This document shows, piece by piece, positions 54,160 to 58,553 of a stretch of DNA of 64,000 nucleotides; the first letter of the stretch is position 1, and each line of letters begins with the position of its first letter. The notes under the pieces were generated by a model. It was not told where the DNA came from, made no database searches, and was given only the letters and a program-made list of their open reading frames with translations. This DNA is from Nitzschia sp. DOCU1 (taxonomy: Eukaryota; Bacillariophyta; Bacillariophyceae; Bacillariales; Bacillariaceae). The stretch is taken from contig OX595985.1 of NCBI GenBank assembly GCA_951394045.1, positions 620,001-684,000 on the forward strand. Direction: 5' to 3'. The position numbers and the translations under genes were made by a program.

Positions 54160-57100
54160 TTAAACTTCGTAGATCGTCACATTGTTCTCTTCAGGTGCAG
54201 GCTGATAGAAGATCTCTGCTTCCTCCTTCCTCGTTCCCAGTGCAAAGCAGTGTTCAAAACAAGAGTCATTGGAAATCTTGTTCTCGGATGACGATCTTTC
54301 AAGCTGAAACTCCCAAGGCCCGTCCTCTTCCTTGGGTTCCTTCTTGTCCGTTACATTGTTCTCTTCAGGTGCAGGCTGATAGAAGATCTTTGCTTCCTCC
54401 TTCATCGTTCCCAGTGCAGAGCAGTGTTCAAAATAACTGTAATTGGAAATCTTGTTCTCGGATGACGATCTTTCAAGCTGAAACTCCCAAGGCCCGTCCT
54501 CTTCCTTGGGTTCCTTCTTGTCCGTTACATAATACAGCCCATCATAGCGATAGCAGGTCGTAATTCCAAATTTTGGGTGGGGGCCAATGGCTTGGAGCTC
54601 GTGATATTTGGAGTCCTCTGGTCGAAAAACACGAATTGGCTTGCCAAGTTCATAGCTCTTCACAACTGCAAGTGCCCCCTTGCTTTGCTCAACGAAGTAC
54701 TCGAGCTTAAACAGTTCGTCGTGCCCCAAATTGTCCGGTCTTTTGCCCGACACAATCATGGCGTCGCAGCCAAAATCCTTGTTGCCGGATATGCCACGTT
54801 GTGCCATGATATGGCCATTCAGAGTCAGCATTTCATATCGGATGTAGCACTTGCCCTCGTCCAAGCCTGGAATTTGGCCAAACCGATTGTTACGACCTTT
54901 CCTCGGTGCCAGAGTATCACATGCAACACCAGTGTCGTTTTTAAATACAACCTTTTTCCCCTTGCGGAAGACAAGGACCAGCCGCCTATCGTCCTCGGCT
55001 TCGGCATTGACTTCGGATCCGCGGGGCATGGCTCGTTGAGTTTCTGATCCTCCAACGGCAGCACCGGTAAAAGAATTCCCCATTGCAATCGGGGAGGGGG
55101 TAATTGGAGCGGCATCACTAGACCTTGTTGGTTTGGGCGTTTGTGGCTCGGCTGTGGTAAGCACCCGACGTTTTGGCCCTCGCGCATCAGCCACACCATG
55201 GAAATAGTGCTTTTGCATTTCACCTGGAAGTCAAAACACAAGTGAGCTACAATCGCACGCAGTACCACCGACTAAAACGGCGCTCTTACCATCCATGGAA
55301 TAGCCGTCCCCTGAAAAATTGAGCGCATGAATCGTTAGAAGACATCAGTTGTAAAATAATGCATATCAATCGCACACTAGACCTACCTGCTTCAAGAAAC
55401 AGCTCGATATCTTCATCTCCGTGTTGGAGTTCTACTCCTTGTGCTGGCCGAACCCGAACGACACGAATCTGCCTAGTAGGCATTTTGATTACTGCAGCCA
55501 GAATAAGCTGTTCACCTTGGTCGTTGTCTTTGTTGCCGTCAGACAAAATGGATTGAGAAATAGGCATGGTGTCAGTCTTCTATCACATGGATTTCGGAAC
55601 GCCCCTCTAAAATGCTTACCAGCATGGAAACCCATCTTGTCTTTGGAATCTCGGTACAACACGGCATGGACACCAGTAGTCCATTCAGCAACATCACAAG
55701 TTTCCGCCATTCTCTGTGACACTTTCGCAACTCCACCAAAATTGGCTAATGGGATGCTCTTCATCTTGATCTGTTTACCCATATACGCATAACCAGGCTG
55801 GGGATCTTCAAAGTTGGGCGTGGCATGTTTGTGCATATGAAAATGGCAGCGGGGCTCATCGTCTCCTTGGATCCTGTACTGCCGAAAGAAGCCTGCGCCC
55901 TCGTCACTCAGCAAATCGTTCGAAACATCCGTCAGTTCAGTCTCGGATAGCATGGAAGGATAAATCTTAATGGTTCCGCCTCGATGCAACTTCTTCTCCA
56001 AACATTTTCCAGCGCCTTGCGAGCTCGTGGGAGCCGAAAACAATGTGTCTCGACTGCTCCATCTTTTCGTGTTGGCGTCATACGTCTGGATGGTAGCGAC
56101 GATACGCTCCACCGCATTTTCTTGGTTGGGCGATACTCTAGCATTGGGCGTGAGTTTCCCATGGAATCCCCTTGCAGGCTTTCCAGCCCCTAGAGGACAG
56201 GCTTTCAAAGATTTCTTCACCACACGGGTTTTCTTTGCCGGTCGGTCCTTTTGAGGAACACTCTTAAATTTTGCTTTGGCCTTGGGCGTGGCTTTGGCAT
56301 GGGATAGCTTCTTTGCTGGCTTTCCAGCCGGTAGAGGAAGAGAGCGACTGCCTTTATTCATGCAGTCTTTCAAACAGCTTTTCTTTGCCGGTCGTCGCTC
56401 TCGGTCCTTGTGAGGAACACTCTTGACTTTTGCTTTGGCCTTGGGCGTGGCTTTGGCATGGGATTGTTTCTTTGCTGGCTTTCCAGCCAGTAGAGGACGA
56501 GAGCGACCTTCTTTATCCATGCAGTCTTTCAAAGATGTCTTCACTACAAGGCCTTTCTTTGCCGATGGCTTTCGGTTCTTTTGAGGAACACTCCTGACTT
56601 TTGCGTTGGCGTTGGGCGTGGCTTTGGCAGGGGATCGTTTCTTTGCTAGCTTTCCAGCCAGTAGAGGACGAGAGCGACCTTCTTTATCCATGCAGTCTTT
56701 CAAAGATGTCTTCACTACAAGGCCTTTCTTTGCCGATGGCTTTCGGTTCTTTTGAGGAACACTCCTGACTTTTGCGTTGGCGTTGGGCGTGGCTTTGGCA
56801 GGGGATCGTTTCTTTGCTAGCTTTCCAGCCAGTAGAGGACGAGAGCGACCTTCTTTATCCATGCAGTCTTTCAAAGATGTCTTCACTACAAGGCCTTTCT
56901 TTGCCGATGGCTTTCGGTTCTTTTGAGGAGCACTCCTGCCTTTTGCTTTAGCCTTGGGCGTGACTTTCGCATGGGATATTTTTGCTGGCATTTTAGCCCC
57001 TAGAGCACAAGAAAAAGATTTCTTTTTCGCCACACGGCTTTTTCTTGCTGGTGGCTCTCGTTTCTTTTGAGGAACACCAAATTTTGCTTTTTTGTTCCTG

Positions 57101-58553
57101 TTATTGCCCGCGGGTCGGGAGTACACCGCCGCTAGTATGTCTGCGGGGACGCAAAAGGGCAAAGGCAATGCCTCCTCTTCGACAATGCCTCCTCTTCGAC
57201 CACCAGCCAGACCGCTTGGCAGCTGCCGACAAAAGCTTGCTTGTCCACACAGCTTTAGTATTCTTCGATCAATCTTATCCTCCACCTCGGCTTGCACGGA
57301 AGTGGAAGGATCTAGATCTGGAAGCTTTTTCGTCATGGAATGTTCTGGACACAAAATGGCCAACTCGTTAACTTTGATGGTTGGAGGCAAACAATCCACA
57401 TGGTACGCCGAAGGACAATACAAGCAGCGCTTTAACGAATGAAAAGAGCGAGTTGTTTAGTACGTGGAACGATGCACAGCACGACACAACTCAAGAAGCA
57501 AATCCAACAACAAATAAATCTTACATGGAGGCGGCCATCCTTCCTGCATTGATAAATGCTCGTTTGCTTTTTCTTGCCGCGTTTCTTCTCGGCCTCGTCT
57601 TCTTTTTGTTCCTTCTCAAGAGCATCTTTTTGCGTGCACGTCCAGCAATGATGTGCCGGACAAACAAAGGAAGGAACAACACAAGTTGTACTGATGACAT
57701 CCTCTTCGACACTCCTCGGACTGACACTGCCAGTACTGAAAGCCTGCTCCTCCACCATCTTGAATGAAACGTTATTCGATGCTAGGCAAGATTTGTGAAA
57801 GAAGCGACCACACTCATCTTTTCGGCAGGCAAAGACGTCCACGTTATCCTGCCCGTACTCTTTACAAAAGGGACATTGATGACAGGATTTAGTACAGTCT
57901 TTGCAGATCCAATCTTCGTCTTCACAAGGAACCTGAGACAAGCCTGCGCATGGTAAATGAAAGACACGGTGACAGTCTCCGTCGCAATACACTAATACGT
58001 GGGCGTTGGGGTCGTCCATCAAGCATTCCGCCTCTTTGCACTCGGCACAAACCCAATTCATATCTTCGGCTTCGGTACTTTTCGCCTTTTTCTTCTTCTT
58101 TGTCTTGGAGTTCTCAGCGCCATTGTTGTCTTGCAAGCGATGCCTTTTATAGTCCCGAGACTCCTCGTTGTCGTGGGGGCTGTCACTGTGGTTGGACGAT
58201 GGCTGCCAGGTGCCATCGTCATCGCCATCGTCATTGCTAACGATTATGGACTTTGCTGGAGGCTGCTCAAGTTCACCATCCCATGCTTCTTCGTTCGGGC
58301 TGTCACTGTGGTTGGACGGTGGCTGCCAGGTGCCATCGTCATCGTCATCGTCATTGTCGACGACCATGGACTCAAGAGCACCATCCCATGCTTCTTCGTT
58401 GGGGCTGTCACTGTGGTTGGATGGTGGCTTCCAGGTGCCATCGTCATTGCGAACGATTATTGACTTTTCTGGACGAGGCTGCTCAAGAGCACCATCCCAT
58501 GCTTCGTCCGGCGGCATGATGATGCTTGTGAGGAACGAGCAAAGGAGAGACAT
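54160..58553 (-). CDS. PHD(3)-AlkB dioxygenase-SRA/YDG fusion protein
   Basis: Five exons, complement(57525..58553), (55620..57429), (55387..55527), (55290..55310) and (54160..55223), all introns GT-AG, give 1354 residues (first ATG 58553; 58517 is an alternative that drops a hydrophobic start). Acidic repeats EEAWDGALE/TWQPPSNHSDSP (about 13-130) precede three PHD fingers (about 167-370; the last completed by the first splice, QCRKDGRLH|RCLYCPSAYHVDC). Then come 57-residue basic repeats (about 490-740), an AlkB-type 2OG/Fe(II) oxygenase (about 827-1015; HAD at 945-947 made across a splice, distal His about 1009) and an SRA-YDG domain (about 1115-1252; FGQIPGL, ISGNKDFGCDAMIVSG, CYRYDGLYYV, WEFQLER), then a 58-residue repeat. 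AlkB enzymes oxidise N-methyl groups on nucleic acids; SRA reads modified cytosine; PHD reads histone tails. A nuclear demethylase-like role is inference. Confidence 0.82.
54181..54528 (-). repeat. 174-bp tandem duplication in SRA-protein C-terminus
   Basis: Two units, 54181-54354 and 54355-54528, nearly identical, in frame (58 residues each). Each contains a WEFQLERS segment, the last strand of the SRA domain, so the final part of the domain and its tail were copied. Confidence 0.88.
56250..57000 (-). repeat. 171-bp tandem repeats encoding basic linker
   Basis: About four to five units with 171-bp period; the units around 56470-56640, 56641-56811 and 56812-56980 are nearly identical. Each encodes 57 residues rich in Lys, Pro, Ala and Ser (words KATPNANAKVRSVPQKNRKP and SLKDCMDKEGRSRP). 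Outer units are diverged and shortened. The composition resembles histone H1-like DNA-binding tails. Confidence 0.88.

What the first reader, a model, noticed from the sequence alone, without database searches (positions are those of the whole stretch)
54160..58553. One protein joins PHD fingers, an AlkB dioxygenase and an SRA-YDG domain
Hand-joining five exons gives a continuous 1354-residue frame with three NSD-like PHD fingers, an AlkB-type 2OG/Fe(II) oxygenase and an SRA domain. SRA domains bind modified cytosine, AlkB enzymes oxidatively remove base methyl groups, and PHD fingers read histone tails. The combination would find a mark and erase it in one molecule. I do not know this exact architecture as a characterised protein. 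Domain calls rest on visible motifs; the activity is inference.
Basis: partly seen in the sequence, partly recalled or inferred. Interest (0 to 1): 0.92.

Follow-up and report, generated by a model that had tools for sequence, protein, structure and literature searches.

The report
Diatom AlkB-SRA enzyme with PHD fingers
A diatom gene appears to encode one protein that joins histone-reading PHD fingers, an AlkB-type oxygenase that probably removes methyl groups from DNA bases, and an SRA domain of the kind that senses modified cytosine; the AlkB-SRA pair is shared by several diatoms, and what it reads and repairs has not been tested.

Summary
Five minus-strand exons (58553-54160, GT-AG introns) give an open 1354-residue frame with three NSD-type PHD fingers, an AlkB-type 2OG-Fe(II) oxygenase and an SRA domain. 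Two separate genes are unlikely: exon 2 alone runs from PHD3 into AlkB, and paralogue L030 has the PHD array plus half of AlkB in one 854-codon frame. AlkB-SRA is a diatom gene family: 21 of 26 homologues carry both domains, and all five SRA matches in this genome belong to it. The PHD array most likely came from an NSD-like SET methyltransferase; three of five genomic copies have it, no homologue rescanned elsewhere does. AlkB metal and 2OG residues are intact; its fold is nearest ALKBH2/ALKBH3, which repair 1mA and 3mC. "Finds a mark and erases it" is only partly supported: AlkB and SRA may well act on different bases, and the SRA base pocket is remodelled (Tyr to Arg, finger loop nearly gone). 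Best reading: AlkB repair or demethylation targeted to modified chromatin. Expression, binding and substrate are untested.

The parts
54160..58553 (-). whole gene, five exons, 1354 aa (PHD x3 - Lys-rich linker - AlkB - SRA)
   Evidence: spliced frame; Pfam
57525..58553 (-). exon 1: acidic repeats, PHD1, PHD2, start of PHD3
55620..57429 (-). exon 2: rest of PHD3, Lys-rich linker, first half of AlkB, in one open frame of 603 codons
55387..55527 (-). exon 3: AlkB core from the Asp of the HxD motif on
55290..55310 (-). exon 4 (21 nt): AlkB
   Evidence: a micro-exon of the same length can be placed in the four paralogues
54160..55223 (-). exon 5: AlkB distal His, long loop, R-x5-R strand, SRA, C-terminal duplication, stop
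57894..58037 (-). PHD finger 1 (residues 173-220), NSD type
   Evidence: below the curated cut-off of PHD-1st_NSD; NSD3 and NSD2 are the best PDB matches of the array
57651..57881 (-). PHD finger 2 (residues 225-301), PHD_NSD
57337..57533 (-). PHD finger 3 (residues 341-374), PHDvar_NSD, interrupted by intron 1
56116..57120 (-). Lys/Ala/Pro-rich linker (about residues 447-781), with tandem repeats at 56238-56982
54964..55968 (-). AlkB-type 2OG-Fe(II) dioxygenase domain (residues 831-1087, introns included): H945, D947, H1009, R1081, R1087
54991..55191 (-). low-complexity loop inside AlkB (about residues 1012-1078); this sequence was seen only in this genome's copies and in the 88%-identical fragment P0014; P0015 and P0020 have shorter, different inserts
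54466..54885 (-). SRA domain (residues 1114-1253)
   Evidence: fold
54175..54522 (-). 174-nt tandem duplication (95% identical) covering the end of the SRA coding region

Best explanation
The gene encodes a chromatin-targeted AlkB-family dioxygenase. Shown here, from sequence: a catalytically complete AlkB domain is joined to an SRA base-sensing domain (a diatom gene family), and in this genome three of five copies carry, through a Lys-rich linker, an array of three PHD fingers like that of NSD-type histone methyltransferases. Inferred: the protein is nuclear, PHD fingers and linker hold it on particular chromatin, SRA holds it on DNA carrying a modified base, and the AlkB domain oxidatively removes N-linked methyl groups (most likely 3mC and 1mA) nearby. 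A coherent role is clean-up of 3mC, a reported by-product of cytosine methyltransferases, in the regions those enzymes act on.
Against: No transcript, protein or activity data. The close copies have dN/dS 0.64-0.94 over the core (6 pairs), so recent constraint is weak; the linker evolves fast (0.87-2.30, 3 pairs, the last on a dS of only 0.008). Residues that form the flipped-base pocket in TagI are not kept in the alignment: Tyr55 is Arg in 27 of 29 rows, Asp58 is G, K, N or S in 28 of 29 and a gap in one, and the finger loop is much shorter. Two of five genomic copies have no PHD array. P0013, labelled complete by its source, has AlkB but ends where the SRA would begin. Substrate choice from fold is weak evidence; the AlkB model is of a homologue, not of the window's own (multi-exon) AlkB.
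Confidence: 0.5

Rival explanations
1. Active demethylase: AlkB-SRA oxidises the same base that its SRA recognises (5mC, 5hmC or another cytosine form), serving as a TET substitute.
For: SRA coupled to an oxygenase; every SRA match found in the genome is in this family; ALKBH2, ALKBH3 and AlkB oxidise 5mC in vitro, ALKBH3 about as much as AlkB (passages of PMC8508711), and ALKBH3 is the AlkB nearest by sequence profile; the SRA pocket region has a lineage-specific set (R1162 in 27 of 29, D1169 and Y1176 in 29 of 29).
Against: 5mC is a poor substrate for ALKBH2; two base-flipping domains cannot hold the same base at once without hand-off (inference). A TET/JBP search of this genome found nothing, but it rang in no control genome, so it does not show absence.
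Confidence: 0.2
2. RNA demethylase: the AlkB part acts on RNA and the SRA/PHD parts only place it on chromatin for co-transcriptional work.
Against: SRA domains are known as DNA-base readers and many listed structures are DNA complexes, although UHRF1 also appears in oocyte cytoplasmic lattices; ALKBH2/3 outrank FTO.
Confidence: 0.15
3. Two separate genes, or a non-functional chimera made by domain shuffling among the PHD copies on contig C1.
For: The PHD array is shuffled in this genome: with SET twice, with BTB once, with AlkB-SRA three times; weak constraint between recent copies; no homologue elsewhere with PHD.
Against: One open frame across the PHD-AlkB junction in the window and in L030; in-frame repeats; frame and splice sites kept in L032 at core dS about 0.13; PHD array dN/dS at most 0.51 in all 15 pairs.
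Confidence: 0.12

Closest known systems
ALKBH2 / ALKBH3 (DNA 1mA and 3mC dioxygenases)
   Different: those lack SRA and PHD domains (recalled); about 18% identity in the structural alignment; long loop before R-x5-R in this genome's copies; substrate not tested
TagI and SRA-HNH modification-dependent endonucleases
   Same: closest solved SRA by sequence (E 5.9e-18 with the family profile; 6.9e-7 with the window's own sequence) and among the top fold matches
   Different: no HNH nuclease matched; Tyr55 and Asp58 equivalents replaced in the alignment, finger loop much shorter
UHRF1/UHRF2 and SUVH SRA proteins
   Same: SRA fold; UHRF1 also combines PHD with SRA (recalled)
   Different: no RING or SET in the window protein; the PHD array is of NSD type; the SRA is attached to an oxygenase
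NSD-like PHD-SET histone methyltransferases of diatoms
   Same: three PHD fingers with intron 1 at the same place in this genome's copies; relatives of the N-terminal half found elsewhere, 6 of 6 with SET, one named (Nitzschia inconspicua)
   Different: SET domain absent, AlkB-SRA in its place
AlkB-SRA proteins of diatoms (e.g. P0017 Nitzschia sp. Nitz4, P0003 Cylindrotheca closterium)
   Same: same two-domain core, 38% identity each
   Different: no PHD fingers, much shorter loop in AlkB

Membership tests
AlkB-type 2OG-Fe(II) dioxygenase | double-stranded beta-helix fold matched by Pfam PF13532 above cut-off | tested here: met
AlkB-type 2OG-Fe(II) dioxygenase | H-x-D ... H metal triad and R-x5-R | tested here: met
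   H945, D947, H1009, R1081, R1087; kept in all rows that cover them
ALKBH2/ALKBH3 | removal of 1mA/3mC from DNA | not testable with these tools
   fold and profile nearest to ALKBH2/3; no activity data
SAD/SRA domain | Pfam PF02182 above cut-off and SRA fold | tested here: met
5mC/5hmC-reading SRA | aromatic pair and pocket carboxylate (Tyr55, Tyr67, Asp58 in TagI; PMC6212794, passages) | tested here: inconclusive
   Tyr55 replaced by Arg in 27 of 29, Asp58 not kept; an invariant Asp1169 and Tyr1176 (29 of 29) may stand in, but a 2-residue insertion makes the alignment ambiguous (the MAFFT alignment did not set Tyr1176 against Tyr67) and no coordinates were available
UHRF1 | SRA together with RING (and UBL, Tudor) (recalled) | tested here: not met
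   no such Pfam match among the 7 families listed at E up to 1
NSD histone methyltransferase | NSD-type PHD array | tested here: met
   PHD_NSD and PHDvar_NSD above cut-off; PHD-1st_NSD below; NSD3 E 8.3e-12
NSD histone methyltransferase | SET domain | tested here: not met
   none in the window protein; present in L052 and L053

The most novel reading that the evidence does not exclude
In diatoms one protein family, AlkB-SRA, does the work that UHRF/SUVH-type readers and TET-type erasers do elsewhere: its remodelled SRA pocket reads a cytosine form other than plain 5mC and its AlkB domain oxidises or repairs it; in this lineage histone readers from an NSD enzyme were added, so that one protein reads histones, reads a DNA base and edits a DNA base.
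Probability: 0.15. Interest if true: 0.88.

Novelty: new variant of a known kind. Interest (0 to 1): 0.62.

Why it matters
If it works as proposed, it would be a physical link between base-modification sensing and direct reversal of DNA methyl damage, making the reported link between cytosine methyltransferases and 3mC testable in one protein. It also shows a diatom genome in which every SRA domain found is coupled to an oxygenase, which bears on how diatoms handle DNA methylation, and it catches recent domain capture from a histone methyltransferase gene.

Tried and rejected
Dead AlkB: Pfam stops before the R-x5-R motif and the first candidate (RVLTTAE) lacks the last Arg; alignment with homologues placed the true motif at 1081-1087 after a long loop, so this was rejected.

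Artefact of hand-joining: judged unlikely from paralogue structure.

Viral or bacterial origin of AlkB-SRA: viral contigs gave 7 SRA loci; of these I read two, L054 whole and L056 in part; each has an SRA-HNH-like frame by eye and I saw no AlkB (five not read). Genome contigs gave one SRA locus, not examined further. No origin claimed.

6mA route: an MT-A70 search of the genome found nothing, but it rang in no control genome, so it says nothing. Same for TET/JBP.

Literature: ten searches were answered; six of them were aimed at AlkB with SRA/YDG or at AlkB in diatoms. Their listings, and the passages of two papers opened, showed no description of AlkB-SRA or PHD-AlkB-SRA. Two comparative-genomics papers by Iyer, Aravind and colleagues that I recall as likely places for such fusions are not held, so this is not evidence of absence from print. 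Of all papers cited I saw passages only.

Organism: not named by any search; homologues point to a pennate (recalled: raphid) diatom. An 18S search did not complete.

Reach of the searches: and considered only proteins of 745-2370 aa (by the tool's length rule), only 265-843 aa and only the 7994 candidates sharing most words; relatives outside these limits may be missed. Genome searches were six-frame without introns, so an SRA split by introns could be missed.

Full report
The gene. On the minus strand, exons 58553-57525, 57429-55620, 55527-55387, 55310-55290 and 55223-54160 join into 1355 codons including the stop, without internal stops; all four introns are GT-AG. Pfam puts NSD-type PHD fingers at 173-220 (below its own curated cut-off), 225-301 and 341-374, an AlkB-type oxygenase at 831-1017 and an SRA domain at 1114-1253. 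Between PHD3 and AlkB lies a Lys-rich, histone-H1-like (my impression) linker of tandem repeats; the repeat spacings reported in the gene are all multiples of three, as expected of coding sequence.

Is it one gene? Exon 2 alone encodes the end of PHD3, the linker and the first half of AlkB in one open frame. In paralogue L030 even intron 1 is open, so the PHD array to mid-AlkB is one 854-codon frame without any splicing (the half AlkB and PHD-1st_NSD score below their cut-offs there). The junction frame is kept in L032, whose core differs by dS about 0.13. Introns 2 to 4, with a 21-nt micro-exon, can be placed alike in all five copies. Transcripts are lacking.

The family in this genome. A search of the 52-Mb genome with the AlkB-SRA part found five loci: the window, L030, L031, L032 on contig C1 and L033 on C4. 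The SRA family search found five matches, exactly these five loci. PHD fingers are present in three (window, L030, L032); L031 and L033 have other N-termini within the stretch that I fetched. The PHD array itself has six copies: the three above, two fused to a SET domain (L052, L053) and one to a BTB domain (L051). Intron 1 interrupts PHD3 at the same place in all six as modelled. Since six of six relatives of the array in other organisms carry SET, the array most likely came from an NSD-like methyltransferase gene together with its intron. The divergent copy L033 (core dS 0.52-0.57) lacks it, so the capture probably postdates that split (inference).

The family elsewhere. Two protein searches returned 26 distinct proteins; 21 have both AlkB and SRA by precomputed Pfam. 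Of the other five, four are records of 270-328 aa with one of the two domains, and P0013 (1248 aa, labelled complete by its source) has AlkB and ends where the SRA would begin. Named sources are Cylindrotheca closterium, Nitzschia sp. Nitz4, Epithemia clementina and Amphora coffeaeformis; the taxonomy of Cylindrotheca, Epithemia and Halamphora coffeiformis (taken here for Amphora coffeaeformis) places them in Bacillariophyceae (Nitzschia not looked up). None of the 19 homologues rescanned, of 26, has a PHD finger, and none of the 26 lists one in its precomputed domains. Two, P0008 and P0012, have a domain of unknown function, DUF6824. So AlkB-SRA is the conserved unit.

Selection. Pairwise dN/dS (Nei-Gojobori): PHD array 0.15-0.51 in 15 pairs. 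AlkB-SRA core 0.38-0.43 against L033 (4 pairs), 0.64-0.94 among the four close copies (6 pairs). Linker 0.87-2.30 in 3 pairs, the highest on a dS of 0.008. Older constraint is clear, recent constraint is weak.

Mechanism. Shown from sequence: domain set, intact catalytic residues, conserved AlkB-SRA coupling, PHD array of NSD type. Inferred: nuclear location, histone and base reading, demethylation. The genome has C5-DNA-methyltransferase matches at about six places, not sorted into classes, and in the diatom Phaeodactylum DNMT5 knockouts lose most of their 5mC signal (4-5 fold; passages of PMC9998398; its main text holds neither 'SRA' nor 'AlkB'). That aberrant DNMT activity yields alkyl adducts is stated with a citation to Rosic 2018 in PMC12133304 (passage). 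An AlkB tethered by a base reader to methylated regions would remove 3mC there. This is the reading I rate highest, at about even odds; erasure of the read base itself is a live rival.

Novelty. I know of no characterised protein with AlkB plus SRA, or with PHD added; the literature searches showed none, with the limits told under Tried and rejected. Domains and folds are all known, so this is a new variant of a known kind: a new architecture rather than a new chemistry.

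Noticed in passing
G000 C1, loci L030, L032, L051 and the window gene: Mosaic histories: in the AlkB-SRA core the window gene is nearest to L030 (dS 0.018), in the PHD array nearest to L032 (dS 0.072), while L030's PHD array is nearest to L051 (dS 0.104). This points to recombination or gene conversion between copies.
   Followed up: partly
L051 (G000:C1:1145000-1152500), frame 4021-5994 minus: NSD-type PHD array fused to a BTB domain, sharing part of the Lys-rich linker with the AlkB-SRA fusions.
   Followed up: partly
L031 (G000:C1:983000-991500), about 2151-3107 and 3672: A copy without PHD fingers: its N-terminus is different and proline-rich, and upstream of it two identical translated stretches lie 696 bases apart, perhaps a mobile element.
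   Followed up: no
window 54175-54522: Recent 174-nt tandem duplication (95% identical) of the end of the SRA coding region; the other four copies as modelled have the stretch once.
   Followed up: partly
L030 about 5701-5753, L031 about 6063-6115: The last residues of the window protein match these copies in another frame, so their C-termini after the SRA end earlier and differently.
   Followed up: no
window 58600-58850 and 59040-59300: Upstream stretch appears duplicated about 440 bases away (by eye; not reported by the repeat finder).
   Followed up: no
window 59462-61969, plus strand: Neighbouring 835-codon frame that resembles a HEAT-repeat protein of the VAC14 type (recalled impression, not tested).
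   Followed up: no
P0008 (unnamed source) and P0012 (Amphora): AlkB-SRA proteins with a further DUF6824 domain after the SRA: another addition to the same core.
   Followed up: no
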